Both the position numbers and the translations under genes were made by a program. A stretch of DNA of 64,000 nucleotides from Desulfobacteraceae bacterium (lineage in GTDB: Bacteria > Desulfobacterota > Desulfobacteria > Desulfobacterales > Desulfobacteraceae), in the NCBI GenBank assembly GCA_024226935.1, contig JAAELK010000423.1, positions 1 to 64,000 of the forward strand. The letters are read 5' to 3'. Shown piece by piece: positions 1 through 36,197 of this stretch. Numbering within the stretch: position 1 is the stretch's first letter; each line of letters begins with the position of its first letter. The notes beneath the pieces were generated by a model. That model searched no databases. It had not been told where the DNA came from and worked only from the letters and a program-made list of their open reading frames with translations.

Positions 1-11
1 AAATCAAGATT

Positions 12-5097: not shown

Positions 5098-8062
<2,965 letters not shown>

Positions 8063-18486: not shown

Positions 18487-18683
18487 TTATCTTTTCCGGT
18501 TAAAAAAAATATCAACCTCATGATTTCTTCATAATAGCGATGTTATGATACCAACCAATATAAAAAGATATTTAAAAATATGAATTATAAAGAACCCCCC
18601 AATTTTATGGAATACCTGATCAGTGGCTGTCATGGTTGGCAGCCGTCTTTTTTATCCACGGCATTTGTGAAGGAAGCTGTCCT

Positions 18684-19379
18684 ATGAACCAGGAAAAGTC
18701 CCGGGGGTATCTCTTCTTGATATTGATTTTTCCCCTTCTTCTGCTTTTCCTGGGGATAATGTTGGAATACAGCGGTTTTGATCTTTGGTGGGTTTCCCAT
18801 TTTTATGATGCCGGGACCCGATCCTGGCCATTTCGGGGCCATTGGCTTTTTGATTCTGTCATCCATGGATGGGGAAGGCGTTTGGACATCGGGATAGCTC
18901 TGGTGTGGGTGATGCTTTTTTCTTCAACCTTCTTTTTTAAACCCTTTAAAAAATTTAAAAAAATTTTGATCTATTTTTTGGTGGCTTCCGGGGCAGGTCC
19001 TTTGATAGTTGGTGCCGGAAAACACCTTACACATATTTATACCCCCTGGGATTTGAAAATATTTTCCGGCACAATGCCCTATATTAAAATATTTGATCCT
19101 GTACCAAGTGGCTTGCCAGTTGGCCAGGCATTTCCAGCGGGACATGCATCCGGTGGCTATGCATTTTTTAGTCTGTACTTTGTCCTTGTCTATCTGGGGT
19201 CGCCATATAAAAAATATGGTTTTTTATTTGGATTGATCCTCGGGTTGATATTCGGGATAGGCCAACAAGTCAGGGGAGCTCATTTTCCCAGTCATGATCT
19301 GTTTACCATGGTTATCTGCTGGTACTCAGCTCTTTTTTTCTATTATATTTTTTATCCAAAAAAATGGAGTTTTTATTAG
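18684..19379 (+). CDS. PAP2-family membrane phosphatase
   Basis: This 231-residue membrane protein starts at ATG 18684 after AAGGAAG; an earlier TTG at 18636 gives an unlikely extension. There are five or six helices and the acid-phosphatase signature in three parts: GKHLTHIYTPWDL, FPAGHASGGYAFFSLYF (PSGH-like) and RGAHFPSHDLFTMVICW. The substrate could be a lipid phosphate such as lipid A, undecaprenyl diphosphate or phosphatidylglycerol phosphate. It is directly followed by an LtaS-like transferase and dgkA, suggesting a role in lipid recycling or lipid A modification. Which lipid is not decided by the sequence. Confidence 0.83.
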   Translation: MNQEKSRGYLFLILIFPLLLLFLGIMLEYSGFDLWWVSHFYDAGTRSWPFRGHWLFDSVIHGWGRRLDIGIALVWVMLFSSTFFFKPFKKFKKILIYFLVASGAGPLIVGAGKHLTHIYTPWDLKIFSGTMPYIKIFDPVPSGLPVGQAFPAGHASGGYAFFSLYFVLVYLGSPYKKYGFLFGLILGLIFGIGQQVRGAHFPSHDLFTMVICWYSALFFYYIFYPKKWSFY

Positions 19380-19381
19380 TA

Positions 19382-21346: not shown

Positions 21347-21366
21347 TATTATCCAAGGAGTTTGAG

Positions 21367-21723
21367 ATGTCCCTGAAACCAACAGGTCTTTCCCGTATCA
21401 TAAAGGCGACCAGATATTCATTTGCTGGAATTAAAGCCGCCTGGAAGTATGAAGCTGCGTTTCGACAGGAATTTGTTGGATTGGTAATCTTAATACCCCT
21501 TGGATTATTTTTAGGCAAAAGCGGTGTTGAAAAAGCTTTGTTGATCTCTTCTCCCATGATAGTGATTCTCACCGAGCTTATAAATTCCGCTTTGGAGGCG
21601 GTTGTTGACAGGATAGGCCTTGAATCTCATCCCCTGGCGGGAAGGGCAAAGGATATGGGGTCAGCGGCCGTTTTTGTCAGTATTCTCATTGTAATTGTCA
21701 TCTGGACTGTGATTCTTATTTGA
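21367..21723 (+). CDS. dgkA: Diacylglycerol kinase
   Basis: This 118-residue integral membrane kinase phosphorylates diacylglycerol to phosphatidic acid. It has the N-terminal amphipathic segment with GLSRIIKATRYSFAGIKAAWKYEAAFRQE, three membrane helices, and the catalytic and ATP-site residues in LTELINSALEAVVDRIG and HPLAGRAKDMGSAAVF. Placed 21 nt after the LtaS-like gene, it would return the diacylglycerol made there to phospholipid synthesis, as dgkA does beside eptA in other bacteria. Confidence 0.95.
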   Translation: MSLKPTGLSRIIKATRYSFAGIKAAWKYEAAFRQEFVGLVILIPLGLFLGKSGVEKALLISSPMIVILTELINSALEAVVDRIGLESHPLAGRAKDMGSAAVFVSILIVIVIWTVILI

Positions 21724-21785
21724 ACTTTGTAAAAAAGCATTATACCATGGGAGATTAGAGATATAAAAAATATGGAAATATTGGC

Positions 21786-22463
21786 ATGACCATTCTTATT
21801 GTCGATGACGATGCAGAACTGCTGAGTCAGCTCAGGGAATCCTTGGAAAGAAAACATTACCGGGTTGAAACTGCGGTTAATGGAGAGTTGGCCCTGGATA
21901 AAATATTTGCGGTCACCTATGACCTTATTTTATTGGATATAATGCTGCCCCGTCTGGATGGATTTGGTGTTCTCAAACAGATCCGCCAGGCTGGGTTGAA
22001 CACTCCGGTACTGATGCTCACTGCCAGAAGTGATGTTGAAGACAGGGTTAAAGGGCTTGATTATGGCGCAGATGATTATCTTGCAAAGCCTTTTTCCCTG
22101 GCGGAGCTAATGGCCAGAATCAGGGCAATGCTGCGAAGGGACGGTAAAAAAAGTCCGGTTCTTACGGCGGGTTCCATTCAATTGGACACCGTCAGCCGGG
22201 CGGTCACCCAAGGGGGTAAATTGCTCAATTTAACATCCAAGGAATTTTCCATCCTTGAATTTTTGCTGCATAATAAGGGGGGGGCTGTTTCAAGGTTTAA
22301 CCTGGCAGAACATGTATGGGGGAATGACTTTGATCCTTTTTCCATGTCAAATTTTATTGATGTCCATATTAAAAATCTACGTAAAAAATTAAAATCCCAT
22401 GGCGATATGGAGTTGATCAGAACGATTCGCGGTATTGGGTTTATAATTGATGAGTCTGGATGA
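21786..22463 (+). CDS. OmpR/PhoB-family response regulator
   Basis: This 225-residue protein has a receiver domain (acidic pocket DDD at 7-9, phosphoacceptor Asp51 in LLDIMLPRLDG, Thr in MLTARSD, Lys in YLAKPF) and a C-terminal winged helix (LTSKEFSILEFLLHNKGGAV, then NFIDVHIKNLRKKL and IRTIRGIGFIID). It overlaps the histidine kinase by 4 nt. It follows PAP2-LtaS-dgkA in the same direction with a 62-nt gap, so it may control that set, like PmrAB-type systems. No operator was identified. Confidence 0.93.
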   Translation: MTILIVDDDAELLSQLRESLERKHYRVETAVNGELALDKIFAVTYDLILLDIMLPRLDGFGVLKQIRQAGLNTPVLMLTARSDVEDRVKGLDYGADDYLAKPFSLAELMARIRAMLRRDGKKSPVLTAGSIQLDTVSRAVTQGGKLLNLTSKEFSILEFLLHNKGGAVSRFNLAEHVWGNDFDPFSMSNFIDVHIKNLRKKLKSHGDMELIRTIRGIGFIIDESG

Positions 22464-23845
22464 AAATACAAAAAAAAATAGCTCTGTGGATTTCCGGAAC
22501 TGCTTTTTTATCAACTATTATTTTTTCTTCTTTCATTTTTTTTGAGCTGATGGAAGAACATTTCAAGTCCATTGATAACGAGATCCAGTATATGGCAGTT
22601 TCTCTTGTGGAACATATGGAGGACCTGGGAAAGGGGCCCTATGATTTCTCCTATTTACCCTATTTGTCATCTAAATTGAATAAGTATTGGATAAAGGTGA
22701 CAAATAGCCAGGGTAAAATTTTATATCAATCTGCCCTGGTTAAATATATTGATATTCCTTCTTTTTCAAATAAAACAAGTTATATGTTGGAAAAAGTTAT
22801 CCCGAGATCTCAAGTCCAGCTGGGGCAAGACAGTCAGGATGGGGTGCTGTTCAGGGTAAGTGTGATTAAAACTTTTCTTACCGGTTTACCCATTGAAGTT
22901 CGAATTGCCAAGCCCATTGAAAGCCTTGAGGAAAAATTGCTCAATCTTATACGTCGTATTGCCATCAGTCTTTCTTTGGGAACCTTGCTCATTATTGTTT
23001 TGAGCTATAAGCTGGCTGGCAAAATTTTGAATCCAATTGTTTCCATCACCAGAATGTCAAAAGAGATCAGTGAAAAATCTTTATACAAACGTATCCCCTT
23101 GAGTCGTAATAAGGATGAACTCTATGATCTTTCCCTTGCCTTGAATAAAATGTTTGACAGCCTTCAATATTCCTTTAAGCAACAAAAGGAATTTATCGGA
23201 AATGCTTCCCATGAGCTGAAAAGTCCCATCACCCTTCTCATGTTGGCCCAGGAAGAGATGCTCATGAATGAAAATTTGCCCTCATCTGCCAGTAATGCCT
23301 TGAATAAACAGCTTGATACCACCCGGCGGATGAGTCATCTGGTGAGGAATTTGCTGGATCTGTCCCGCCTTGAACACCAGGAAACACTGGATAAAAAACC
23401 GGTTGATATGGCAACATTGGTAGGTAAGGTTTTAAATGATTATACAGAGCTGTTTAAAGCAAAAAAGATTAGAATACAAAATAAACTTTCCGGAGAGTTG
23501 ATTATTCAAGGTGATAAAGAAAAATTATTCCGGCTTTTGATTAATTTAATTGATAATAGTATTCGTTATAATTTTGAAAAAGATGGAATTGTCATTGTTG
23601 AGGGGAAAAAAATAAATAAAGGGGTCCGGCTGGAAGTTTCCAATACTGCCAAGCCGATTCCCGAAGATGATATCGATCAAATTTTTGAACAGTTTTACCG
23701 GGTGGAAAAATCTCGTTCAACCAGTCATGGTGGTTCAGGGCTTGGATTGGCCATAGGTAAAAAGATAGTTGAACTTCATGGCGGCACCATTGTTATTATC
23801 AATGAACCTGGGTCTTTTGTAAAGGTTTCGGTCTTTTTCTCGTAA
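22460..23845 (+). CDS. Sensor histidine kinase with HAMP domain
   Basis: This 461-residue kinase has two membrane helices (about 8-30 and 165-185) around a periplasmic sensor of about 130 residues, a HAMP domain (YKLAGKILNPIVSITRMSKE), HisKA with phosphoacceptor His251 (FIGNASHELKSPIT), and a HATPase: N-box LLINLIDNSIRYN, G1-like region and G2 GGSGLGLAIGKKIVELHGG. It pairs with the response regulator just upstream. A 30-bp stretch of its HAMP coding sequence (23055-23084) is repeated exactly beyond the asr operon. Confidence 0.93.
   Translation: MKIQKKIALWISGTAFLSTIIFSSFIFFELMEEHFKSIDNEIQYMAVSLVEHMEDLGKGPYDFSYLPYLSSKLNKYWIKVTNSQGKILYQSALVKYIDIPSFSNKTSYMLEKVIPRSQVQLGQDSQDGVLFRVSVIKTFLTGLPIEVRIAKPIESLEEKLLNLIRRIAISLSLGTLLIIVLSYKLAGKILNPIVSITRMSKEISEKSLYKRIPLSRNKDELYDLSLALNKMFDSLQYSFKQQKEFIGNASHELKSPITLLMLAQEEMLMNENLPSSASNALNKQLDTTRRMSHLVRNLLDLSRLEHQETLDKKPVDMATLVGKVLNDYTELFKAKKIRIQNKLSGELIIQGDKEKLFRLLINLIDNSIRYNFEKDGIVIVEGKKINKGVRLEVSNTAKPIPEDDIDQIFEQFYRVEKSRSTSHGGSGLGLAIGKKIVELHGGTIVIINEPGSFVKVSVFFS
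23055..23084 (+). repeat. 30-bp direct repeat, copy 1 (inside histidine kinase gene)
   Basis: The 30 bases beginning TGTCAAAAGAGATCAGTGAA are identical to 27076-27105 in the same orientation. They encode the end of the HAMP motif (MSKEISEKSLY). Flanking bases differ on both sides. Confidence 0.9.
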
Positions 23846-24160
23846 AAGATTTTGACAGGTTCGATATAACTTTCCAAAAGCATGCTTGTCTCCCCTAACC
23901 GATGCTCCCATCCAGATTAACCACACCCTTTTTCTGATATAATTTAGCAAAGATCAAGATATTTTATCATATTTTTAATGAAGGTCAAGAGTCAAGCCAG
24001 CTCCAAAAAACTAATAAATTAATTCAACAAAAAAGCTTTAGATACTATTTTTAAAGTGATATTATACCGTCTTGTTGATCAGTCTTATCTTTTTTAAAAA
24101 CTGGATCATCGAGGAAAAATAAAGGAACACAAAATAGAATAACAAATAGGGAGTAACATA
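23846..24160 (+). other. 315-nt AT-rich gap before asrA
   Basis: No gene was found here. The composition turns AT-rich toward asrA. A weak sigma-70-like pair (TTTAGA, 17 bp, TATTAT, about 24037-24066) and the 18-bp repeat at 24096-24113 are the only marks. A GGGAG ribosome site precedes asrA. No FNR-like TTGAT-N4-ATCAA box was found. Confidence 0.4.
24096..24113. repeat. 18-bp sequence repeated from trfA
   Basis: An exact second copy of bases 52-69, located 48 nt before the asrA start. It may be coincidental. Confidence 0.4.
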
Positions 24161-25183
24161 ATGGGTTATAAGCTTAGCCCTTTAGCTTTTGACTATTATT
24201 TAAAAGCTTTAAGGAACACATACCGCATTTTCGCCCCGGTTCTGCAAAAGGGCAAAGGTAAATTTGCAGGAACCGATGTGATTAGCTATGGAGAAATAAA
24301 TAGTTTAGATGATATCATGCTGGATAGAAAATCATACTTTTCGCCTAAAGAAGTTTTGTACCCAATACGTGAAACCCTCTTTTATTTTCTCAATGATGAA
24401 ACAAAAGCACCCGCCATTAATGTAAAACCAATTCTTATACTTGTTAGGCCATGTGACTTAAACGGGATAGGAAAATTGGATAGGGTCTTTTTAAACAATG
24501 GTCAGGAAGTTGATTTTTATTACGCACGAAGAAGAGAATTGATCAAATTTGCAATGATCGAATGTGTAGAAGGATTTGATACTTGCTTTTGTGTATCCAT
24601 GGATTCAAATGTTGCAAATAATTACGATATGGCGGTGCGCTTTGATGAAGACAACATTACAGTAAAAGTTGTGGATAAATCGTTGATTACAAAGGACCTT
24701 ACCCATGCAGATACCGCAATATTTGAACCTGCATTCATTCAAGAAAACAAAGTCAAAGTTACAATTCCAGAGGTCGATTTAGTAACAAAAAAAACCTTTG
24801 ATCATGAACTTTGGGAAGAGTATACAAGTCGTTGCATAGCATGCGGAAGGTGTAATACATCATGTATTACCTGTTCATGTTATACCATGCAAGATATCAA
24901 GCTAAGTGATGACAAAAAAATAGGTGAACGTAGACGCGTATGGGCGGGATGTCATATTGATGGATTTACAAATATGGCAGGAGGGCATAATTTTAGAAAA
25001 AAAAATGGTGAAAAAATGCGCTTCAAAACCATGCACAAAATTAACGATTTTTATAAACGTTTTAATGAACATATGTGTGTTGGATGTGGAAGGTGTGATG
25101 ATGTTTGCCCTGAATATATCTCCTTTTCAAAATGCATTAATAAGTTAAATGCAATAGTAAGAGAGGAAACGCTCCATGAATAA
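24161..25183 (+). CDS. asrA: Anaerobic sulfite reductase subunit A
   Basis: This 340-residue ferredoxin-like subunit passes electrons to the siroheme subunit. It has a 220-residue N-terminal domain of the family (RPCDLNGIGKLDRVFLNNG, FAMIECVEGFDTCFCVSMDS) and two C-terminal [4Fe-4S] motifs, CIACGRCNTSCITCSCY and CVGCGRCDDVCPEYI. Start ATG after GGGAG. It overlaps asrB by 8 nt. Codon use is clearly more AT-rich than in flanking genes, suggesting transfer. Confidence 0.93.
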   Translation: MGYKLSPLAFDYYLKALRNTYRIFAPVLQKGKGKFAGTDVISYGEINSLDDIMLDRKSYFSPKEVLYPIRETLFYFLNDETKAPAINVKPILILVRPCDLNGIGKLDRVFLNNGQEVDFYYARRRELIKFAMIECVEGFDTCFCVSMDSNVANNYDMAVRFDEDNITVKVVDKSLITKDLTHADTAIFEPAFIQENKVKVTIPEVDLVTKKTFDHELWEEYTSRCIACGRCNTSCITCSCYTMQDIKLSDDKKIGERRRVWAGCHIDGFTNMAGGHNFRKKNGEKMRFKTMHKINDFYKRFNEHMCVGCGRCDDVCPEYISFSKCINKLNAIVREETLHE

Positions 25184-25967
25184 TCCATATTTACCCGATG
25201 CCTATAAAATTCTTGATATCAAAAAAGAGACACAAATTGATTATACATTTAAAATTGCTTACGAAGGTGCCTTAGTAGGTGGTCAGTTTATGGAGATTTC
25301 CATACCAGGTGTTGGCGAAGCTCCCATTTCAATCTGTAATTACGATGATAGCTCATTGGAAATGACCATACGCAAAGTCGGGAATTTAACAGATCAAATT
25401 TTTAACTTAGAAAAAGGTGACACTTTATATATGAGAGGACCCTATGGCAATGGGTTTAACTTAGATCATTATAGGGGTAAAGATGTAGTTTTTATTGCAG
25501 GCGGTACAGGGTTAGCACCTATTAGAAAAACCATTGATCATTTTGTAAATAACCCAGATGAAGTTAAAAATCTTGAGGTTCTAATTGGTTTTAAATCTCC
25601 CAAAGATAGACTGTTTATCGATGACATAGATAGATGGTCTGAAAAAAATTGCGTTACGGTGACCGTTGATCAGGGAGATGATTCTTGGACAGGAAAAACA
25701 GGTCTCATAACAACCCACATAGATAAACTTGATTTAACCAATATTAGTGAAAAAATTGCAGTTGTCGTGGGCCCACCAATTATGATGAAATTCATGCTTT
25801 TTGAACTAATTAAAAAAGGGTTTAAAGAGAAAAATATTTGGGTTTCATTTGAAAGAAAGATGAGTTGTGGTATTGGGAAATGTGGACATTGTAAAATTGA
25901 TGAAACCTATGTTTGTCTCGAAGGCCCAGTTTTCAATTATACCACAGCAAAAGCACTAATAGATTAG
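25176..25967 (+). CDS. asrB: Anaerobic sulfite reductase subunit B
   Basis: This 263-residue flavoprotein takes electrons from NAD(P)H. It has a ferredoxin-reductase-type FAD barrel (GGQFMEISIPGVGEAPISIC with the flavin-binding RGPYGNGF), an NAD-binding half (VVFIAGGTGLAPIRKT, VVVGPPIMMKFML) and a C-terminal [2Fe-2S] motif CGIGKCGHCKIDETYVC like dihydroorotate dehydrogenase PyrK. It lies between asrA and asrC, with a 10-nt gap before asrC. Confidence 0.93.
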   Translation: MNNPYLPDAYKILDIKKETQIDYTFKIAYEGALVGGQFMEISIPGVGEAPISICNYDDSSLEMTIRKVGNLTDQIFNLEKGDTLYMRGPYGNGFNLDHYRGKDVVFIAGGTGLAPIRKTIDHFVNNPDEVKNLEVLIGFKSPKDRLFIDDIDRWSEKNCVTVTVDQGDDSWTGKTGLITTHIDKLDLTNISEKIAVVVGPPIMMKFMLFELIKKGFKEKNIWVSFERKMSCGIGKCGHCKIDETYVCLEGPVFNYTTAKALID

Positions 25968-25977
25968 GAGAGCAGTT

Positions 25978-26961
25978 ATGGGTATCAATGGAAAAATAGT
26001 CACAAAGAATGCTTATCGCATAACAAAAACAAGAAATAAAACGGCCCTGAGAATAAGAGTTCCAGGTGGATATATCAAAGTAAAACACTTTACACTAATA
26101 CAATCCATAGCAGAGGAGTATGGTGATGGAACTGTCCACATAACAACAAGACAGGGTTTTGAAATACCCCACATAGATTTTGATAAAATAGCCCAAATTA
26201 ACAAGAAAATCAGACCGCTTATTGAATCATTGGGATTGGATATTGAAGTGACAGATTATGGATACCCTGCTGCGGGAACAAGAAATATATCAGCATGTGT
26301 GGGGAGCAGAATATGTCCCCAGGCAAATAATGACACCACTAAAATTGCAAGAAAAATTGAAAGAACTATCTATCCAAATGATTTTCATTTCAAGGTTGCC
26401 ATTACTGGATGCCCCAATGACTGTATCAAAGCACATATGCAGGACTTCGGTATTATTTGTACCACAGATCCACAATATGATGCAAATCGTTGTATAAGTT
26501 GCAAGGCTTGTGTAAAAAACTGCAAGAAAAACGTAACCGGCGCTCTTGAAATGAATAATTTCAATGTTAAAAGAGATGCTGAAAAATGTATTGGTTGTGG
26601 TGAATGTATTCTTAAATGTCCCATCGGTGCTTGGTCAAGAGGTGAAACACCCTATTATAGAATGGTCATTATGGGTAGAACAGGTAAAAAAAATCCTAGA
26701 ATCGCCATGCCCTTTATAAAATGGAGTTCAGAAGATGTTGTTGTAGGAGTTATTAAAAACACCTATGCTTTTGTTGGGCGCCACATAGATAGATCATTAC
26801 CCAAAGAGCACATAGGCTATATTGTAGACCGTGTTGGTTATCAAGTATTTAAGCAAGAAGTCATGGAAGGTCTAAAGCTAAATAAAAAAATTCAAATAGC
26901 AGAAAATATTCAATGGCACGGATATTACTATAAACAGGACAATCAATTTAAATCAATCTAA
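25978..26961 (+). CDS. asrC: Anaerobic sulfite reductase subunit C (siroheme)
   Basis: This 327-residue catalytic subunit reduces sulfite to sulfide using siroheme coupled to [4Fe-4S]. Key features: the N-terminal THITTRQGFEIPH-like HITTRQGFE, siroheme-cluster ligands in ACVGSRICPQANNDT and ITGCPNDCIKAHM, and an inserted ferredoxin domain with CISCKACVKNC and CIGCGECILKCP. It completes an asrABC operon of the Salmonella/Clostridium type, distinct from dissimilatory DsrAB. AT-rich codon use continues to the end. Confidence 0.93.
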   Translation: MGINGKIVTKNAYRITKTRNKTALRIRVPGGYIKVKHFTLIQSIAEEYGDGTVHITTRQGFEIPHIDFDKIAQINKKIRPLIESLGLDIEVTDYGYPAAGTRNISACVGSRICPQANNDTTKIARKIERTIYPNDFHFKVAITGCPNDCIKAHMQDFGIICTTDPQYDANRCISCKACVKNCKKNVTGALEMNNFNVKRDAEKCIGCGECILKCPIGAWSRGETPYYRMVIMGRTGKKNPRIAMPFIKWSSEDVVVGVIKNTYAFVGRHIDRSLPKEHIGYIVDRVGYQVFKQEVMEGLKLNKKIQIAENIQWHGYYYKQDNQFKSI

Positions 26962-27075
26962 GAAGATAAAAATTGTCCTTCCGTTTGTTGCACTGCGTTA
27001 TATCACAGATACCAACAAACCAAAAAACTCACTTTGAAGGTGTCTTGGATGCAATCACCCTAAAGGTTACCATAT

Positions 27076-27105
27076 TGTCAAAAGAGATCAGTGAAAAATC
27101 TTTAT
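27076..27105 (+). repeat. 30-bp direct repeat, copy 2 (beyond asrC)
   Basis: An identical copy of 23055-23084, lying in the 149-nt gap between asrC and the sigma-54 activator and ending 5 nt before the activator stop codon. It is not part of an open gene here, so it is likely a recombination or insertion footprint. Confidence 0.9.
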
Positions 27106-27110
27106 TCCTT

Positions 27111-29009
27111 TCAGTTTTTGAGGCCATTCTTATATCGGTTTAGTTTTCGGTAAAGCGTGGCCCGTGAGATTCCTAAAATTTTGGCAGTTTCAGCCATGTT
27201 TTGCTTAGTCTGTTCCAGGGTTGCAAAAATCATGTTTTTATTCATTTGCTCCAGGGTGCCAGGGGCTGCCCCGGATTCGGTTGGCTTCGATAACGGAAGG
27301 TTGAGGTGGGCAGTATCCAGAACATTGTTTTCACAAAGTTGAAGGGCACGTTGGATGCAGTTTTCAAGTTCCCTTACATTTCCCGGCCAACGGTAGGAGC
27401 ACAGGGCCAGGATGGCCTCGGGGGAAAGCCTGGGTGGGTTTGAAGAATGTTCAGCCAGGAATAACCGGATCAGGGTTAGAATATCTTCTTGTCCCCGCTC
27501 TTTTAAGGGGGGGATGGGAATTGGGAATACATTCAGGCGGTAATAGAGATCTTCTCGGAACCGGCCATCCTGGATGGCCTGGATCAGATCTACATGGGTT
27601 GCGGCAATGATACGTGTCTGGATGCGGACAGGTTTGTTGGCACCTATGCGATAGACTTCCCTTGTCTGGAGTACCCTGAGTAGCTTTACCTGCATGTTGT
27701 GGGGCATGTCTCCGATTTCGTCCAATAGTACGGTGCCCTTGCCAGCCAGTTCGAATTTGCCTGGTTTTCCTCCTTTGGCACCACCGGTAAAGGTGCCGTC
27801 CATATAGCCGAACAGTTCACTTTCCAGAAGATTGGCCGGAATGGCGCCGCAGTTTATGGGGATAAAGGGTTGTCCCGTGCGCCGGCTCTGGTTGTGGATG
27901 GCCTGGGCAAAGAGTTCCTTGCCCGTACCTGTTTCTCCGAGGAGTAAGACAGTGGTGTCGGAGGACGCTGCTCGTTTGGCGAGGGTCACAGCCTTGGTGA
28001 AGTGGGGGGAAGTCCCGGTAAGATTGTCAAAGGTGAACAGGGCCCGGGTGCCTGCAATGGTATCGGCCATTTGATAAACCTCATCCATCCGGTCAAAGGT
28101 GATCATAGCCCCCAGAGGTTCTCCATTCTCTGAAGAAACCAATTGGACAGAGCCGATCAGGGAGAGTTCTTCTTTTCCAAGGATCAGGCGGTATTCCCGA
28201 TTGATCCAGGCCCCTGGATTTGAGGTAACATTTTTAAGATCAATGTCCAGATTATTGAGAATAGACAGTGGTTTTCCCTCAAGCCCTTCCATGCCCAGTA
28301 TTGCCCTGGCCTTCCGGTTGACCCTCCATATATACTTGTCCTTTTTAATTACAATCAGGCCATTTCTTGCCGTTGTCATTGCCTGATCCAGAAAATGAAG
28401 ATTCAGGGATAGTTCCCGGTTTCTGCGGATTACCCGTAACTGCTGTTCTGCCGCTCTGGCTGCTGTGGTTACCATGAACAGGGTATGGGGATGGGTTTCT
28501 GCTGAAGATCCTGCCACTGCAATTACACCGATGAGTTCCTTGTTTTTACCGAAAATGGGGGCGGAAGAACTTGTCAGGTCGTGGACCTGACGGCAATAAT
28601 GTTCTGCTCCTGATAGCTGGATGGGGATTTGGAGGGTCAAAGCCAGAGAAATGGCACTGGTGCCCACATCATTTTCCATCCACCGAAATCCCGGGGTACA
28701 ATTGGTCCTGCTGGCGATGTTGCCCATGGAAGGACTGGATTCCACATGGAGGATATAGCCGTCACGATCCACAGCAGAGATAAAATATTCTTTTGGGGCC
28801 AACAGGGACTGGAACTCTTTGAACTGGGGGATGAGGATATCCAACAGGGGCTGATTTTTTTTTCTCCGTCGGGCAAGATTCTTTTGGGAGAGGCATCCCT
28901 GCACAGGATCACGGTGTACAGGATCTATACCATATGCTGCTGAACGTTTGAAGGAGAGACGGATTTGCTCTTGCAAATCTTTTGAATCTATCAGTTTTCC
29001 CTTTTTCAT
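27111..29009 (-). CDS. AcoR-like sigma-54-dependent transcriptional activator
   Basis: This 632-residue activator has an N-terminal GAF region (about 60-200), a PAS-like domain (about 205-310), a central AAA+ domain (about 325-560) and a Fis-type HTH (AETAKILGISRATLYRKLNR). AAA+ motifs: Walker A LLLGETGTGKELFAQ, the sigma-54 contact loop as DGTFTGGAKGG (usual GAFTGA), Walker B GTVLLDEIGDMP, and the arginine-finger region FREDLYYRLNVFPIPIP. The operon at 29495-35318 is divergent and carries a sigma-54 promoter plus twin palindromes, so it is the likely target. No receiver domain: it is expected to bind a ligand directly. Confidence 0.92.
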   Translation of the reverse strand: MKKGKLIDSKDLQEQIRLSFKRSAAYGIDPVHRDPVQGCLSQKNLARRRKKNQPLLDILIPQFKEFQSLLAPKEYFISAVDRDGYILHVESSPSMGNIASRTNCTPGFRWMENDVGTSAISLALTLQIPIQLSGAEHYCRQVHDLTSSSAPIFGKNKELIGVIAVAGSSAETHPHTLFMVTTAARAAEQQLRVIRRNRELSLNLHFLDQAMTTARNGLIVIKKDKYIWRVNRKARAILGMEGLEGKPLSILNNLDIDLKNVTSNPGAWINREYRLILGKEELSLIGSVQLVSSENGEPLGAMITFDRMDEVYQMADTIAGTRALFTFDNLTGTSPHFTKAVTLAKRAASSDTTVLLLGETGTGKELFAQAIHNQSRRTGQPFIPINCGAIPANLLESELFGYMDGTFTGGAKGGKPGKFELAGKGTVLLDEIGDMPHNMQVKLLRVLQTREVYRIGANKPVRIQTRIIAATHVDLIQAIQDGRFREDLYYRLNVFPIPIPPLKERGQEDILTLIRLFLAEHSSNPPRLSPEAILALCSYRWPGNVRELENCIQRALQLCENNVLDTAHLNLPLSKPTESGAAPGTLEQMNKNMIFATLEQTKQNMAETAKILGISRATLYRKLNRYKNGLKN

Positions 29010-29158
29010 ATCATTGCCTTTTTATATGTCCGATATTTAAGGTCATGGACCCTTTTAAATTTTCGGGGGAATGATATCTTATGATCGTGTTATGGTCAAT
29101 GGGTTGTGCTAAAAGTCTTTATATTTCAGTGTCATAGAATAAAAGTCATATTCTAATA

Positions 29159-29173
29159 TCTCATTTTGAGACA
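29159..29173. promoter_or_regulatory. Activator binding site 1 (TCTCA-N3-TGAGA)
   Basis: TCTCATTTTGAGA followed by CA is a 5+3+5 palindrome. A second copy with the same arms and CA extension lies 89 bp downstream. Both are upstream of the sigma-54 promoter at 29396, in the position expected for an enhancer site. Confidence 0.65.
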
Positions 29174-29247
29174 TGTAGCATTTTGTATAAAATCAGGGAG
29201 TTTTTGTGTATTTCGGGGGCTGTTTTATCGTTCAATGATGGATTTAT

Positions 29248-29262
29248 TCTCAAAATGAGACA
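29248..29262. promoter_or_regulatory. Activator binding site 2 (TCTCA-N3-TGAGA)
   Basis: TCTCAAAATGAGA followed by CA repeats site 1 with inverted central bases. It lies about 134 bp upstream of the -12 element, a usual enhancer distance. Confidence 0.65.
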
Positions 29263-29277
29263 GGTTATGTTATTTTT

Positions 29278-29296
29278 GAGTTGATCTTTTCAACTC
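29278..29296. other. 7-bp inverted repeat between enhancer and promoter
   Basis: GAGTTGA-TCTTT-TCAACTC, a separate palindrome with different arms from the activator sites. It has no T-run, so it is not a terminator. It could bind another regulator or IHF-independent factor; function unknown. Confidence 0.35.
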
Positions 29297-29395
29297 CATA
29301 ACATCGAATATTTCTTAATGCAGTAAAGTATAATGCCTGGAATTTAAGTGTTTTGTATAAAGACTGTTCCGATAAAGATTATTTTTCCACGGGTC

Positions 29396-29411
29396 TGGTC
29401 CGTTTCTTGCC
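29396..29411 (+). promoter_or_regulatory. Sigma-54 promoter of the catabolic operon
   Basis: TGGTCCGTTTCTTGCC matches TGGCACG-N4-TTGC at the GG and GC cores with correct 10-bp spacing; positions 4 and 5 differ. The predicted start near 29421 gives a leader of about 74 nt before the TTG start. Confidence 0.75.
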
Positions 29412-29494
29412 AAAGCAAATATTTAATGAATTATCGTGCTGATGAAGACAGTCATAAATAGGGTCTATTCAGCCAGACAATAGGGAGGTAGCGT

Positions 29495-30625
29495 TTGAAA
29501 TCCATTGATATCATGGTAATTGGTGGCGGTCTTTCCGGTGCTGCTCTGGCATTGGGGCTTGTCCGTCAAAAGGTCGGGAAGGTGATGCTTTTGGACCAGC
29601 ATCTACCGAGCCAGAGATTGTCCCGGGGAAATTTTGGATTGACCTGGTTTATGTGCAAAGGGGCGGAAAATCCAGCCTATGCTGCCTGGTGTCGTATGGC
29701 GACCCGAGAATGGCCTGAATTTGCAGCCCAACTGGAAGCTTTGACCGGGTATGATGTGGAGTTGGAATGGAAGGGTGGGGCGGTTCAGGCCTTCGGTCGG
29801 GAAGAGTTCGATGTCCATGCCGCTTCCATTAAGAAGATCGGGACAGCCTGTGAAGAGGCGGGTCTGGATTATCCTGTACAGATGCTTACCAGGGAGCAGA
29901 CCCAGGATCTGATTCCGGATATGTCTTTGGGAGAAGAGGTAAGTGGTGCAATGTATACCAAAGAACAGGGGCATGTAAATCCTCTTAAGCTTCTGGCTGC
30001 TATGCGGTCTGCTTTTCAGAAAAAAGGCGGGATCTTCCATGGTGGCACCACCGTCCGGAAGATAACACCTTTGAAAAATGCAAGCATCGCGGTGTCCACC
30101 GGGGAGGGTGATTTTTCCTGCGGCCGGGTTGTGGTGGCAGCTGGCCATGGTTGTGCCAGGCTGCTCAACCCCCTTGGTGAGACCCCTGTGATTTATCCCC
30201 AGCGGGGACAGCTCATGGTGACAGACCGCTATCCCCGCTGTCTTCCTTTTCCATTCCTAAGTGTCAGGCAGACCAACGACGGCACCTTCATGATAGGTTT
30301 GTCTTCGGAAGATACTGCCATGGATACCAATGTTACTCCCCGGGCCATGAATACCCAGGCCAAAAATGCCATTCGCCTTTTTCCAAAGCTTGCCAAGCTC
30401 AATTGGGTCAGGGCCTGGGGTGCTGTCCGGGTAATGACGCCCGATGGTGCTCCCATTTACAGTAGGGTCAAGGGTCATGAAAATCTTTTCATGATAGCCC
30501 AGCACAGTGGGCTATCTTTAGCTCCTGTTATGGCAAGTCGTGTTGCCCCCTGGATTCTGGGAAATTCTGTATCGGGCAGTCAGCAATTTATTTCACAATT
30601 TTCCAATGGACGGTTTCATGTTTAA
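29495..30625 (+). CDS. FAD-dependent amino-acid dehydrogenase, catalytic subunit (DadA/HcnC/LhpB-like)
   Basis: This 376-residue flavoprotein starts with the FAD Rossmann motif DIMVIGGGLSGAALALGL. The body has GYDVELEWKGG, EQGHVNPLKLLAAM, VVVAAGHGCARLL, YPQRGQLMVTDRYP and the C-terminal APVMASRVAPWIL. This is the D-amino-acid dehydrogenase fold, as in LhpB (D-hydroxyproline dehydrogenase), HcnC and SoxB. Start is TTG at 29495, 6 nt after GGAGG (29484-29488). Its two partner genes follow in LhpB-LhpF-LhpE order, so it is probably one subunit of a heteromeric, membrane- or quinone-linked dehydrogenase. Substrate unknown. Confidence 0.8.
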   Translation: MKSIDIMVIGGGLSGAALALGLVRQKVGKVMLLDQHLPSQRLSRGNFGLTWFMCKGAENPAYAAWCRMATREWPEFAAQLEALTGYDVELEWKGGAVQAFGREEFDVHAASIKKIGTACEEAGLDYPVQMLTREQTQDLIPDMSLGEEVSGAMYTKEQGHVNPLKLLAAMRSAFQKKGGIFHGGTTVRKITPLKNASIAVSTGEGDFSCGRVVVAAGHGCARLLNPLGETPVIYPQRGQLMVTDRYPRCLPFPFLSVRQTNDGTFMIGLSSEDTAMDTNVTPRAMNTQAKNAIRLFPKLAKLNWVRAWGAVRVMTPDGAPIYSRVKGHENLFMIAQHSGLSLAPVMASRVAPWILGNSVSGSQQFISQFSNGRFHV

Positions 30626-30914
30626 GCCAGAGAAAAATAATAATATAGATAAAGTGTCCCTTACCCTTGATGGAAAGCAGATTTTTCTGCCTGCCGCCAC
30701 CAGCGTAGCTGCCGGTCTTTTGGGAATTAATGAGCCTGTTTCAAAAATTTCTTCTACATCGGGAAAACCCTGTTCTCCCTATTGTCTCATGGGTGTTTGT
30801 TTTGAATGTACCATGGAAATTGACGGGATAAAACGCCAGGCCTGTCTGACCGAGGTTGAAGAGGGAATGGAGATCAACCGGGGCCTTAAGGGGGCAGAGG
30901 AGAAAGGAAAATGA
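30618..30914 (+). CDS. [2Fe-2S] subunit of amino-acid dehydrogenase (HcnA/LhpF-like)
   Basis: This protein of about 98 residues has a ferredoxin-like fold with CxxxxCxxC plus a distal Cys: PYCLMGVCFECTMEIDG and RQACLTEVEEG. Such small proteins form the electron bridge between the two flavin subunits of LhpBEF/HcnABC dehydrogenases. The start overlaps the preceding gene by 8 nt, with GGACGG upstream; ATG 30606 is an alternative. It overlaps the following gene by 4 nt. Confidence 0.82.
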   Translation: MFKPEKNNNIDKVSLTLDGKQIFLPAATSVAAGLLGINEPVSKISSTSGKPCSPYCLMGVCFECTMEIDGIKRQACLTEVEEGMEINRGLKGAEEKGK

Positions 30915-32332
30915 GTCGTTATGATGTGATTATTATCGGAGCCGGGCCTGCCGGGCTTTCGGCCGGGGCCGTTCTGGGAGAAATGGGGTTAAATGTTCTG
31001 GTTCTGGATGAACAGTCAGTTGTGGGTGGGCAGATTTACCGCCGTATTGAAACTGCCCCTGAACATCGGTTGAAGTTTTTTGGCAGGGATTACAGCCGGG
31101 GGCTTGCCCTGGCCGACCGATTTAAAAAGTCAGGGGCAAAATTTGAAGGAAGTGCCACGGTCTGGCAGGCGGAGTCGGACGGAAGTGTCTGTTATTCCAG
31201 GAGGGGAAAATCAAAAATGGTATGGGCCAATTATATCCTTGTGGCCACAGGTGCCATGGAACGGCCGGTTCCCCTGCCGGGGTGGACATTGTCCGGGGTT
31301 ATGGGGGCAGGAGCCGCCAATGCCCTGGCCAAGGAAGCAGGCCTGGTCCCCGCCGGAAGGGTGGTGTTGGCCGGCAGTGGTCCCTTGCTGTTGCTGGAGG
31401 CATCTCTTCTGCTCAAAAAAGGGGTAGATCTTCTGGCCGTTCTGGAAACAACCCCGGTTATGCCCCCGGTGGCTGCCCTGCCCAAAGGGGTTCAGGCTAT
31501 TTTAGATCCCGGGCTTTTGTTTAAAGGTTTGAAGATCTTAAGAGAAATTAAAAAATCAAAGATCCAGCATTATAAAGGGGTGAAAGATATTCGGGTCATT
31601 GGAACAGATGGGCTTGAATCGGTGGAGGCTATGCACAAGGAGAATCATCTTAATTTTACAGCCGATATCCTGCTGGTGCATTTCGGGGTGATTCCCAACA
31701 CCCATATGGTCAGACAGATGGGTTGTGCCATGGAATGGGATCACATCGGCCGGTTCTGGCAGCCCAAATGTGATGAATGGGGACGAACTATTTTTGAACG
31801 GGTCTTTACCGCCGGGGACGGGGCTGGAGTATCAGGTGCCGGGGCAGCAGCATTCAAAGGAGAACTTGCAGCCCTGGAAATTGCCAGGTGTCTTGGGATT
31901 TTAAATAGCTCGGACCGGGATCGGTTTGCAGCATCGGTAAAAAAGGCAATAAAACAGGATGGCTTTGCCAGGCCTTTCATCGATCATCTCTTTGCTCCGA
32001 GGTTTGATGATAGCTGGTTTGAAGATGAAACTATGATATGCCGGTGTGAAAATATCACCGTGGGAGAGATCCGGCGGGTGGTGGCGCAAGGGGTAAAGGA
32101 TGTCAATGAAGTCAAGGTTATCACCCGGTGCGGTATGGGGCCCTGCCAGGGACGTATGTGCGGGCCGGCCCTGGCGGAAGTGGTGGGACAGGCTCTGTCT
32201 ATTTGTCCGGAAGATGCAGGGTTGTTGCGGATCAGACCGCCCGTAAAGCCGGTACCCTTGGAAGAAATTGCATCCATGGATATGGGGTCGGACGGGGGCA
32301 TGGATGCTAACTGGCTGCTTGATAAAAAATAA
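30911..32332 (+). CDS. FAD/NAD-fold subunit of amino-acid dehydrogenase (HcnB/LhpE-like)
   Basis: This 473-residue pyridine-nucleotide-disulfide-oxidoreductase-type flavoprotein has the N-terminal FAD motif [20 protein letters not shown], an ATG motif ([17 protein letters not shown]), a second Rossmann ([17 protein letters not shown]), and a C-terminal BFD-like [2Fe-2S] domain with [15 protein letters not shown] and [15 protein letters not shown]. This architecture is diagnostic of LhpE/HcnB/OoxA subunits. With the two genes before it, it makes a three-subunit dehydrogenase oxidising a D- or N-substituted amino acid to an imine. Confidence 0.85.
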
Positions 32333-32357
32333 TAGATATAAAAAGAGAGGAGAGAGG

Positions 32358-32714
32358 ATGAGTACAATTAAACGCATGGAAATATCCCGACGAATGAGTA
32401 AAATTGTGGTGCATAATAATACCATCTACCTGTGTGGCCAGGTGGCCAAAGATGGCAGTCTGCCCATCATTGGCCAGGCCGAAAGTATGCTGGCAAGGGT
32501 GGATGCGCTGCTGGAACAGGCAGGAAGTGATAGGAAGCATATTCTTTCTGCCACTGTTTATCTAAAGAATATCCAGGATTTTGAAGAGATTAACAGGGTG
32601 TGGGATCAATGGATTCCCGAGGGCCATGCTCCGGCCCGGGCATGTGTGGAAGCAAAAATAGCCAGGGAAGACCTGCTGGTTGAGATCTCTGTGACGGCTG
32701 TCCTGAAGGAATAA
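32358..32714 (+). CDS. RidA family reactive-imine deaminase
   Basis: This 118-residue YjgF/RidA-fold protein has [40 protein letters not shown] and the catalytic-Arg segment [20 protein letters not shown]. RidA proteins hydrolyse enamines and imines made by amino-acid oxidation, so its place directly after an amino-acid dehydrogenase is logical. ATG 32358 follows AGAGAGG; a longer frame lies inside the preceding gene and is rejected. Confidence 0.92.
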
Positions 32715-32775
32715 TTCCCGGGAAAAATTCGGTGCATTTTATTTTACAATTCAATATCTGAAGGGGAGAGTTTTA

Positions 32776-34194
32776 ATGAGTTTAACTGTTATCATCCTGC
32801 TGAGTACTTTGTTGATATTAGGCAGCACCTATTTTATTACCTATCTCATCAATTATCGGTCCAAAACCACCAGTGAAGATTGGTCCATCGGCGGCAGGAA
32901 TCTGCCCACCTATGTGATCATAGGCACCCAGTTTGCCAGTGCAGCCGGGGGGGGGGTCCTTGTAGCGCTGGTAGGCCTTGGCTACAAGGCCGGCTTGTCC
33001 ACCATGACTTACGGGATCATAGTTGTTATTCCATTTATCATTTTGACCTTTCTTGCCAAATGGTTGAGGACAAATAAGTTCTCTACCATTCCTGATATCT
33101 TTGCTCATATATATGGTGAGCATAAGGGCATTGCTCTGGTGTCAGCCTTGCTGACCCTGATCGTTCCGTTCGGATGGATTACCGCACAACTTGTGGCTTT
33201 TGGTAAACTTTATTCTGCCATCACTGGTCTGGAATCCGCCTACCTGATGATGATAATTACCGGTATCAGCTTGGTTTTTGTTATGCCGTCAGGTCTGAAA
33301 ACCGTTGCCTGGACAGATTTTTTCTTTGCCTGTTTCATGCTTGTGATCTGTTTTATCGTGACTATGGGCGCCCTGGATATGGCCGGTGGCTGGGCCCATG
33401 TGTTGACCAGGGTACCAGAGCAGAATGTGGCTCTTCCCGGAGGATTTTTCAGCGTAGGTGGTTTTACCGTGCTGCTCTGGTTTTTTTCCGCCCTGCCCGG
33501 CGGTGTTACCAACCAGATCTATTACCAGCGTATCAGTGCCATTAAAAATCCAAATCAGGTCAGGATCAGCCTGATTGGTGCGGCCATTGCCTTGATTGCT
33601 TCCATTGTCTGGGCCTTCATGATGGGCTGCATCATCCGTTCTTTGAATCCGGGACTTGAATCGGAAATGGCTACGGGATGGCTGCTCACCCAGTTGCCCA
33701 TCTGGCTGCTGGCTTTGTTTGCAGGTCTCATTGTTGCCACTATTATTTCCACGACCTCCAGTGCCTGCCAGACTGTTGTTCTGAACATTACCCGGGATAT
33801 CTACTTAAAACTCATGGTGGATGAACCTGAGGAGAAAAAATTGATAGTTTTGTCCAGGCTGCTTTCGGTAGCGGTTATGGTTATAGCCTGTTCCATGTCT
33901 ATTTGGTTTCCAGAAACTTTGAAATGGCTTGTTTATACCTATGCATTTTCAGCAGCCGGTCTTCTGGCACCTATTTTTCTTGGATATATTTACCGGGACA
34001 GGGGCTTTATTACTCAGAATGCGGTGTTGAGCTCCATGATCGTTGGTATAGTGGTTTGTATTTTTACTAAACAATTTTCCACCATTATCCCCTTTGCTGT
34101 ATGGGGAATTTTAGGCTCTTTTATCACCATTTATCTGGTGAGTATGGTTGAAGGGACGAAAAAAGAGAAATTAGAAGAGAGGAAGGTTCGATGA
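32776..34194 (+). CDS. Sodium:solute symporter (SSS family)
   Basis: This 472-residue carrier has about 13 membrane helices. Family landmarks: the N-terminal SIGGRNLPTYVIIGTQFASAAGGGVLVAL, the region GSMTYGI-like TMTYGIIVVIPFI, and the sodium-site helix ALFAGLIVATIISTTSSACQTVVLNITRD. Related carriers move proline, pantothenate or betaines with sodium. Position between ridA and the enolase-superfamily gene makes it the likely uptake system for the operon substrate. It overlaps the next gene by 4 nt. Confidence 0.9.
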   Translation: MSLTVIILLSTLLILGSTYFITYLINYRSKTTSEDWSIGGRNLPTYVIIGTQFASAAGGGVLVALVGLGYKAGLSTMTYGIIVVIPFIILTFLAKWLRTNKFSTIPDIFAHIYGEHKGIALVSALLTLIVPFGWITAQLVAFGKLYSAITGLESAYLMMIITGISLVFVMPSGLKTVAWTDFFFACFMLVICFIVTMGALDMAGGWAHVLTRVPEQNVALPGGFFSVGGFTVLLWFFSALPGGVTNQIYYQRISAIKNPNQVRISLIGAAIALIASIVWAFMMGCIIRSLNPGLESEMATGWLLTQLPIWLLALFAGLIVATIISTTSSACQTVVLNITRDIYLKLMVDEPEEKKLIVLSRLLSVAVMVIACSMSIWFPETLKWLVYTYAFSAAGLLAPIFLGYIYRDRGFITQNAVLSSMIVGIVVCIFTKQFSTIIPFAVWGILGSFITIYLVSMVEGTKKEKLEERKVR

Positions 34195-35318
34195 AAATCA
34201 TATCCATTGATATTAAATTTTTGAAAGTTCCGTTGAAAAGGCCCTATGTATTGTCAGCTTATTACGGTACACTTTATGATACCTGCCCCATTGTTGTTAA
34301 GATTGAGACGGATGCCGGTATAACAGGGTATGGGGAGACTGATCCTTTGGGGCTGTTCACCGGTGAAACTCCTGAAACCGTTGTTTGTGTGTTAAAACAT
34401 TATCTGGCTCCGGCTCTTATAGGCAGCGATCCCACCAATATTGCAGGTCTTCACAGGATTATGGACGCAACGGTAAAGGATATGTTCCTGGCCAAGGCAG
34501 CCCTGGATATTGCTGCCCATGATATCCTGGGAAAAACCGCCAACCTGTCTGTGGGCACTCTTCTGGGGGGACGGCTGAGAGAATCTCTTCCCATCATGGG
34601 GTCTATTGGGGGAGGATCTCCTGAAACCAATGCCCGGGAAGCCATGGGCATGGTCAGGGCCGGATACGGGGCCATCATGATCAAGGTCGGCGGCAGTGAT
34701 ATTGGCTATGATCTGGAACGGACACAGGAAATACGAAAGGCTGTGGGTCCTGATATGCCCCTGATCCTGGATGCCAACCAGGGATGGAACGTCAGAACCT
34801 CAATGAATTTTCTTAAGATGGTGGAGTCATGCTGCATCGAGATTTTTGAGCAGCCAGTTCCGGCTGCAGATATCCGGGGATTAAAACGGATCCATGAGAA
34901 TACCGATGTCATGATATCTGCAGATGAAAGCCTGCTGTCCATGGAACATGCCAAACAATTGATCCAGAGTCAGGCCGTGGATATATTCAGTATCAAGGTC
35001 AGTAAAAACGGCGGGATCTTCCCCACCCGGCAGATTATAGAACTGGCAGGCAATTTCGGTATCGATATTTTGTTCAATTCAATGATAGAAGAAGGCATTA
35101 CCCAGGCGGCAAGTTTCGCATTGGGAGTTGCCACCAAAAATCTTTATCCCAGCGGCCATGCCTATTTTTCACCCACCCGTCTTGAAGCTGATATTACAGA
35201 TTTTTCAGGGTTTATTGACAATGGTAGTATTTGTATTCCCGCCACCCCGGGACTTGGTATCCGGGTGGACAACGATAAGCTTGACCGATATACCAAAGAG
35301 GTGATTCATATCAGCTAA
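34191..35318 (+). CDS. Mandelate racemase/muconate lactonizing enzyme family protein
   Basis: This 375-residue enolase-superfamily enzyme has the metal ligands Asp194 (LILDANQGW), Glu220 (EIFEQPVP) and Asp245 (ISADES), with Lys165 (IMIKVGG) and Lys269 (IFSIKVSKNGG) as opposing acid/base residues, the MLE-subgroup pattern. The usual first Lys of the KxK motif is Met here. Relatives include dipeptide epimerases, cis-3-hydroxyproline dehydratase and 4-hydroxyproline-betaine 2-epimerase. In this operon a racemase/epimerase feeding a D-specific dehydrogenase is a good hypothesis; a dehydratase is the alternative. Confidence 0.85.
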   Translation: MKIISIDIKFLKVPLKRPYVLSAYYGTLYDTCPIVVKIETDAGITGYGETDPLGLFTGETPETVVCVLKHYLAPALIGSDPTNIAGLHRIMDATVKDMFLAKAALDIAAHDILGKTANLSVGTLLGGRLRESLPIMGSIGGGSPETNAREAMGMVRAGYGAIMIKVGGSDIGYDLERTQEIRKAVGPDMPLILDANQGWNVRTSMNFLKMVESCCIEIFEQPVPAADIRGLKRIHENTDVMISADESLLSMEHAKQLIQSQAVDIFSIKVSKNGGIFPTRQIIELAGNFGIDILFNSMIEEGITQAASFALGVATKNLYPSGHAYFSPTRLEADITDFSGFIDNGSICIPATPGLGIRVDNDKLDRYTKEVIHIS

Positions 35319-35345
35319 AATTGATAATGCCTTCGGAGTCACGCC

Positions 35346-36077
35346 GTGGATGGGCCCCTTGGTGAGGGTGTTGAGGGCGATTATAATCAAAAACCCCTTT
35401 ATCGTTTTGATCTATTTGATTGCACTACATTTGTTGAAATGGTTCTGGCTCTGGCCTATACCCGGCCCGAAAGCATAAAAAAGGATCTTTCAGCCTTTGA
35501 AGAGATGGTGAAATTAATTCGCTATGGGAATGGGGAACCTTCTTTTTTAACCCGTAATCACTTCCCCAGTGCAGATTGGATTCCTAACAATACGATTGGT
35601 AATGGCTTGCTCAGGGATGTGAGTCATGAAGTGAGTCTATGGGGATCCGGGGCTGTGGGTCTGGCATTGATTAACAAACAGGGCTGGTATCAACATTTTG
35701 ATGACAAAAATACCCCGATCTGCCTGGTCGATAATGATCTGCCCTATCCAAATTGTGACGGTGGGGTAGATGATCAGGTCAGGGCCCTGGAACAATTAAA
35801 GGTCCAGGCCGAACAAGAGGTTGAAAATGTCCTTGCTGGGATTAATTATTTGCCCCTGTGGCAGATTTTTGTCTTTCCTTCGTTGACCAAAGAGCAGTTG
35901 GCTAATATTCCTTCCGGTTCAATTATTCAATTTGTAAGGCCGCGTTATGATCTTCGCGATTTTATAAATACGCGTATGCATGTTTCCCATCAGGGTATTG
36001 TAATTCAATCTCCTGATAAAGGAACTTTATTGCGCCATGTTTCTTCCAGTTTAAGTAAACGAAAAGTTGTGGGTTGA
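35346..36077 (+). CDS. DUF1460 (amidase-like) protein, 5'-truncated and probably frameshifted
   Basis: This 243-codon frame starting at a GTG matches DUF1460 from DGPLGEGVEGDY through YRFDLFDCTTFVEMVLAL (catalytic-type Cys), HFPSADWIPNN, IPSGSIIQFVRP and HVSHQGIVIQ. Members are lipoprotein or periplasmic enzymes of the NlpC/P60-like type and usually have a signal peptide and a TPW-like segment before GPLGEG. Here there is no signal and no ribosome site. In the next frame just upstream (35320-35343) one reads IDNAFGVTPW, so a one-base deletion near 35345 separates it. The gene begins 27 nt after the preceding stop, so its 5' end appears lost. The C-terminus (KRKVVG) also ends early. Confidence 0.6.
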   Translation: MDGPLGEGVEGDYNQKPLYRFDLFDCTTFVEMVLALAYTRPESIKKDLSAFEEMVKLIRYGNGEPSFLTRNHFPSADWIPNNTIGNGLLRDVSHEVSLWGSGAVGLALINKQGWYQHFDDKNTPICLVDNDLPYPNCDGGVDDQVRALEQLKVQAEQEVENVLAGINYLPLWQIFVFPSLTKEQLANIPSGSIIQFVRPRYDLRDFINTRMHVSHQGIVIQSPDKGTLLRHVSSSLSKRKVVG

Positions 36078-36115
36078 TCTTATCTTTAAGGGTTAATTTA
36101 ACTTTTAATTCAGGG

Positions 36116-36144
36116 TTGACTTTAAAATTTTTTGTGAGTAAGTA
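36116..36144 (+). promoter_or_regulatory. Promoter of the tetR-acyl-CoA synthetase operon
   Basis: TTGACT (36116-36121), 17 bp, TAAGTA (36139-36144). It overlaps the palindrome listed next and precedes the TetR start by 53 nt. Confidence 0.5.
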
Positions 36145-36152
36145 TCACTTAC
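36138..36152. promoter_or_regulatory. Probable TetR-family operator
   Basis: GTAAGT-ATC-ACTTAC is a perfect 6+3+6 palindrome covering the -10 element. Its position fits autorepression by the TetR protein encoded next. Confidence 0.6.
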
Positions 36153-36197
36153 CATACTGAAAAATAACATCAAATCTTTAATAAAGACTGCTAAATC

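What the first reader, a model, noticed from the sequence alone, without database searches (positions are those of the whole stretch)
23055..27105. 30-bp perfect direct repeat flanking the asr region
A 30-base part of the histidine kinase HAMP coding sequence recurs exactly, in the same orientation, just beyond asrC and 5 nt before the sigma-54 regulator stop. Such an exact match is very unlikely by chance. It points to a duplication or recombination event that placed the asr operon between a gene and a fragment of it.
Basis: partly seen in the sequence, partly recalled or inferred. Interest (0 to 1): 0.6.

Follow-up and report, generated by a model that had tools for sequence, protein, structure and literature searches.

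The report
Copied kinase scrap at island junction
A 30-letter scrap of a neighbouring sensor gene was copied exactly into the seam where two separately acquired gene blocks meet; it looks like an ordinary DNA-repair scar with no sign of a function.

Summary
The 30-mer TGTCAAAAGAGATCAGTGAAAAATCTTTAT occurs exactly twice in the 6.09-Mb assembly: at 23055-23084 (HAMP codons of a histidine kinase) and at 27076-27105 (non-coding, 5 nt beyond the sigma-54 regulator stop). Chance is excluded.

Kinase orthologues in the family carry this stretch in place (27/28 in a sister species), so copy 2 is the derivative. The repeats do not bound the asr insert. The asr unit shared with another sister genome (90.5% DNA identity) is 23960-26975; it excludes both copies and sits at another locus there, without the repeat. 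In a sister genome lacking asr, the kinase is followed by a PHP gene, not the regulator. Relative to that genome, 23.85-36.2 kb is an insertion or replacement. It looks composite: Firmicutes-like asr (GC3 0.26-0.29) with a decayed IS end upstream, joined to a regulator/oxidase block (GC3 about 0.5). Copy 2 lies in the roughly 135-bp filler between them.

Best explanation: a short templated insertion, or a nearly erased duplication, left by illegitimate joining at that seam. No recombinase, unusual synonymous constraint or second fragment was found. Real but ordinary; low interest.

The parts
22460..23845 (+). Sensor histidine kinase (HAMP, HisKA, HATPase_c), intact; source of the repeat
   Evidence: ORF; Pfam HAMP 5.4e-9, HisKA 6.1e-12, HATPase_c 6.7e-23; orthologue 73% in G003
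23055..23084 (+). Copy 1 of the 30-bp repeat (source copy), codons for MSKEISEKSL in HAMP
   Evidence: Exact match; conserved in place in orthologues
23846..23959 (.). Left filler between the kinase stop and the asr unit; no strong match elsewhere apart from a 42-bp, 86% intergenic match in the same genome
24055..24113 (+). Decayed end of a multicopy insertion sequence just upstream of asrA (terminus AAAACTGGATCATCGAG)
   Evidence: About 84% identical to IS ends at many contig ends of this genome; also present upstream of asrA in G005
23960..26975 (+). Acquired asr unit: upstream region plus asrA, asrB, asrC
   Evidence: 90.5% DNA identity to G005 at another locus, with sharp ends
24161..25183 (+). 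asrA-like 4Fe-4S protein
   Evidence: Pfam Fer4_22 1.2e-31
25176..25967 (+). asrB-like flavin/NAD reductase subunit
   Evidence: Pfam NAD_binding_1 and DHODB_Fe-S_bind
25978..26961 (+). asrC-like siroheme sulfite reductase subunit
   Evidence: Pfam NIR_SIR 8.6e-28; nearest named relatives outside the genus are Firmicutes, 77-79%
26976..27075 (.). Right filler of unknown origin between asr and copy 2
   Evidence: No convincing match in own genome, family genomes, plasmids, phages or E. coli
27076..27105 (+). Copy 2 of the 30-bp repeat (derived copy), non-coding
   Evidence: Exact match to copy 1
27111..29009 (-). Sigma-54-dependent regulator (GAF, AAA+, Fis HTH), complete; convergent with asr
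   Evidence: Pfam; best family homologue only 52%
27106..36197 (.). Regulator/oxidoreductase block (DAO, 2Fe-2S protein, FAD oxidoreductase, RidA-like, SSF transporter, MR_MLE enzyme, amidase-like) absent from G003
   Evidence: Synteny break against G003 at 23811 and 36197; Pfam; GC3 0.50-0.54 for the regulator-to-MLE genes against 0.26-0.29 for asr

Best explanation
Copy 2 is a non-functional scar of illegitimate recombination. When the asr unit became joined to the regulator block next to the kinase, the broken end was extended for about 30 nt using the kinase HAMP sequence as a template, then switched to the regulator end. A variant leaving the same trace is a duplication reaching into the kinase that was then almost wholly deleted. 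Shown: exact copy, direction of copying (kinase to intergenic), position between two blocks of different composition, absence from the sister genomes with syntenic kinase or with asr. Inferred: template switching as the mechanism, and that the copy arose together with the seam rather than later.
For: Only two copies in the genome; kinase orthologues carry the stretch in place, 27/28 in G003, 27/30 in G026, 26/28 in G083; G003 lacks asr, regulator and copy 2 and is syntenic on both sides; G005 has the same asr unit elsewhere without the repeat; copy 2 lies in about 135 bp of filler between blocks with GC3 0.27 and 0.53; a 5-of-7 match precedes the exact stretch; synonymous conservation of the source stretch is unremarkable, rank 57 of 452 windows; no Ku gene found, so classical NHEJ filler is less likely than replication-type template switching. 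Template switching at microhomologies of 2-15 bp, with joints followed by stretches copied from elsewhere, is described for E. coli and human cells (PMC2621351).
Against: No same-species genome without copy 2 was available, so the event itself is not seen. The other 100 bp of filler has no identified source, which a simple templated insertion does not explain. The microhomology at the joints is imperfect on the left and cannot be judged on the right.
Confidence: 0.72

Rival explanations
1. Relic of a tandem duplication: a segment from the kinase HAMP to downstream of asr was duplicated, then nearly all of the second copy was deleted, leaving 30 bp before the regulator.
For: Same orientation and a spacing of 4 kb fit a tandem duplication; this gives the same end product, so the present sequence cannot exclude it.
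Against: Needs two events with a deletion ending 30 bp into the copy; no other remnant of kinase or asr is found in 26976-27110.
Confidence: 0.2
2. The repeats are attachment sites (attL/attR) of a site-specific integrative element that carries asr.
For: Exact 30-bp direct repeats of this length at two flanks resemble att cores; asr is acquired.
Against: No integrase or other recombinase ORF lies between the copies. The kinase runs on intact through copy 1 and its 3' part aligns with G003 in synteny, so the sequence right of copy 1 is native. The asr unit in G005 ends elsewhere and has no such core. What follows copy 2 is not a kinase 3' end.
Confidence: 0.02
3. Copy 2 has a regulatory role: read-through of the regulator gene would give a 3' tail with 30 nt perfectly complementary to the kinase mRNA.
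For: Orientation is right (regulator on -, copy 2 on +, kinase on +), and neither strand has a terminator-like site in the seam.
Against: Unique to this genome among those examined; source stretch not unusually constrained at synonymous sites; folds of the region are near shuffled expectation, z -1.1 and -1.65.
Confidence: 0.03
4. Assembly artefact or chimeric read.
For: The genome is a 590-contig draft with many collapsed IS copies; reads could not be inspected.
Against: Contigs end 110-140 bases into repeats, consistent with a long k-mer near 127, so a 30-bp repeat should not break or misjoin the graph (my inference). Both genes beside the seam are complete.
Confidence: 0.03

Closest known systems
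Templated insertion by microhomology-mediated template switching (FoSTeS/MMBIR; PMC2621351)
   Same: A short stretch copied from nearby DNA at a non-homologous joint, in a region with other rearrangements
   Different: Event not observed; left microhomology imperfect; adjoining 100 bp of filler without known source
Short-patch double illegitimate recombination in Acinetobacter baylyi (from memory; no held paper describing it was found)
   Same: Short intragenomic segments placed at ectopic sites by microhomology
   Different: Known from natural transformation in another phylum; competence of this organism not tested
Anaerobic sulfite reductase operon asrABC
   Same: Three genes in order with the expected domains
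   Different: In a Desulfobacteraceae-type genome, next to a decayed IS end; the repeat is not part of it
Integrative element with direct-repeat att sites
   Same: Exact direct repeats around an acquired operon
   Different: No recombinase, wrong boundaries, native sequence on the inner side of copy 1

Membership tests
Templated-insertion (template-switch) scar | Short exact copy of DNA from elsewhere in the genome | tested here: met
   Exact 30-mer, two copies genome-wide
Templated-insertion (template-switch) scar | Copy lies at a novel non-homologous junction | tested here: met
   Between asr unit end 26975 and regulator stop 27111; both flanks absent from G003, asr alone in G005
Templated-insertion (template-switch) scar | Microhomology at the switch points | tested here: inconclusive
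   5 of 7 bases before the exact stretch; right side cannot be judged without the pre-event sequence
Templated-insertion (template-switch) scar | Pre-event sequence known | not testable with these tools
   No same-species genome found
Tandem duplication relic | Remains of the duplicated segment beyond the repeat | tested here: not met
   No further kinase or asr fragment in 26976-27110
Site-specific integrative element (attL/attR) | Integrase or recombinase gene in the element | tested here: not met
   ORFs and Pfam between the copies show only kinase 3' part and asrABC
Site-specific integrative element (attL/attR) | Element boundaries coincide with the repeats | tested here: not met
   Shared asr unit is 23960-26975; sequence inside copy 1 is native kinase
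IS/transposon target-site duplication | Repeats abut the terminal repeats of an element | tested here: not met
   The only IS end found, at 24113, is 1 kb from copy 1 and 3 kb from copy 2
asrABC anaerobic sulfite reductase | Fe-S subunit, flavin/NAD subunit, siroheme sulfite reductase subunit in one operon | tested here: met
   Pfam hits in order; relatives across Firmicutes
asrABC anaerobic sulfite reductase | NADH-dependent sulfite reductase activity | not testable with these tools
   Needs an assay

The most novel reading that the evidence does not exclude
The copied 30 bp was kept because read-through transcripts of the sigma-54 regulator carry a perfect antisense to the kinase mRNA, so that the acquired block damps the neighbouring two-component system.
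Probability: 0.03. Interest if true: 0.5.

Novelty: new member of a known kind. Interest (0 to 1): 0.15.

Why it matters
It is a readable trace of how two acquired gene blocks were stitched together next to a host gene, apparently without homologous recombination or a recombinase. That is useful as one dated example of a repair scar, but it changes no understanding of function. The stronger by-product is that the asr unit in two species of the genus carries the same decayed IS end upstream, which points to shared mobilisation.

Tried and rejected
Att-site reading rejected for lack of a recombinase and wrong boundaries. Other fragments in the seam: none of 13 bp or more besides the 30-mer, none in own genome, family, plasmids (one 38-bp, 87% hit to a Vagococcus plasmid, E 0.009, taken as chance), phages, E. 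coli, viral contigs. Copy 2 as a decayed second kinase: upstream frame shows only weak HAMP-like similarity, and flanks do not align with any orthologue. Nucleotide-level constraint on the HAMP stretch: not exceptional. Ku/NHEJ: no Ku found. Searching the literature for the Acinetobacter short-patch mechanism found no describing paper in the library.

Full report
Observation. The 30-base sequence TGTCAAAAGAGATCAGTGAAAAATCTTTAT is present at 23055-23084 and again at 27076-27105 on the same strand. Shuffled sequence gives none. The whole assembly holds only these two places even with three mismatches allowed. Extended leftward the pair matches at 35 of 37 bases. Copy 1 is inside the HAMP domain of an intact histidine kinase; copy 2 is non-coding, 5 bases beyond the stop of a convergent sigma-54 regulator. 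In 856 kb of the same genome the other exact direct repeats of 24 bp or more within 10 kb belong, by inspection, to tandem arrays, paralogous genes or multicopy elements.

Direction of copying. Kinase orthologues in the family carry the stretch in its place inside the gene: 27 of 28 bases in G003 (73% protein identity), 27 of 30 in G026, 26 of 28 in G083. So the kinase copy is ancestral and the intergenic copy derived. The strength of conservation across species follows from the protein: synonymous sites in this stretch are not unusually conserved, rank 57 of 452 ten-codon windows.

What the flanks are. G003, a genome of the same genus without asr, is colinear with the window from 18500 to 23811 and again from 36197 onward. 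Between these points it has only a PHP-domain gene convergent with the kinase. That gene has only a distant relative (29%) in the window's genome. Relative to G003 the window therefore carries about 12.3 kb in place of that gene. The kinase 3' neighbourhood is also different in other family members. A second genome of the genus, G005 (record PIVS01000001.1, Desulfobacteraceae MAG), has asrABC at an unrelated locus. The DNA match between the two spans window 23960-26975, 90.5% identical, and ends sharply on both sides. Outside the genus the closest asrC relatives are Firmicutes, 77-79%. The asr genes have GC3 of 0.26-0.29; the kinase 0.385; the regulator and the oxidase, symporter and MR_MLE genes beyond it 0.50-0.54. 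The regulator's best homologue in the family is 52% identical and no same-genus genome passed the limit, and the other genes of that block were not found beside it there. I infer that the window holds two blocks of different origin, meeting at about 26975-27110, and that copy 2 sits in that seam.

An IS end beside asr. Window 24055-24113, just upstream of asrA, is about 84% identical to the end of an insertion sequence with dozens of copies in this genome, many at contig ends where assembly broke. The terminus AAAACTGGATCATCGAG occurs 36 times in this assembly. The same relic lies upstream of asrA in G005. This suggests that asr was mobilised together with, or beside, an IS in this genus. I could not name the IS family: two ORFs beside the terminus in other genomes have no Pfam match.

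Mechanism. The repeats do not bound the asr unit, the sequence between copy 1 and the kinase stop is native, and no recombinase lies between the copies. Recombination between two pre-existing repeats, or site-specific insertion at them, therefore does not explain the arrangement. The simplest account is that copy 2 was made while the seam was formed or repaired: an end was extended for about 30 bases on the kinase as template and then joined to the regulator side. Template switching at microhomologies of 2-15 bp in E. coli, and joints followed by stretches from elsewhere, are described (PMC2621351). A Ku gene was not detected, which makes classical end joining less likely, with the reserve that the assembly is 95% complete. 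A duplication followed by a deletion leaves the same trace and stays open as a rival, though no other remnant was found. The source of the other 100 bp of filler, 26976-27075, is unknown.

Function. Neither strand of the seam shows a terminator-like site and RNA folds are near expectation. A read-through transcript of the regulator would be antisense to the kinase over 30 nt. Nothing supports this beyond geometry; I give it 3%.

Verdict. Ordinary in kind, low in interest.

Noticed in passing
window 24055-24113; also upstream of asrA in G005 (L025 about 6500-6560): Decayed end of a multicopy insertion sequence directly upstream of asrA in two species of the genus, at different loci; hints at IS-linked mobility of asr.
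   Followed up: partly
window 1-69 and many contig ends (C204, C310, C312, C387 and others): The contig begins inside an IS end sharing the terminus AAAACTGGATCATCGAG; 36 exact copies of the terminus in the assembly, with differing inner sequences, so several related elements share one end.
   Followed up: partly
L131 (G000:C387) about 587-966: Two inverted copies of that terminus about 380 bp apart, resembling a short non-autonomous element.
   Followed up: no
window 26976-27075: 100 bp of filler with no convincing source in any collection searched; one weak 38-bp match to a small Vagococcus plasmid.
   Followed up: yes
window 27106-36197: Sigma-54 regulator with DAO, 2Fe-2S protein, FAD oxidoreductase, RidA-like protein, sodium:solute symporter, MR_MLE enzyme and amidase-like protein; looks like an acquired amino-acid-derivative catabolic block replacing a PHP gene of G003.
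   Followed up: partly
L186-L187 region, G000:C373 16083-19937, and G000:C110 382-6349: Two pairs of long direct paralogous gene duplications (offsets 3482 and 4517 bp) seen in the repeat survey.
   Followed up: no
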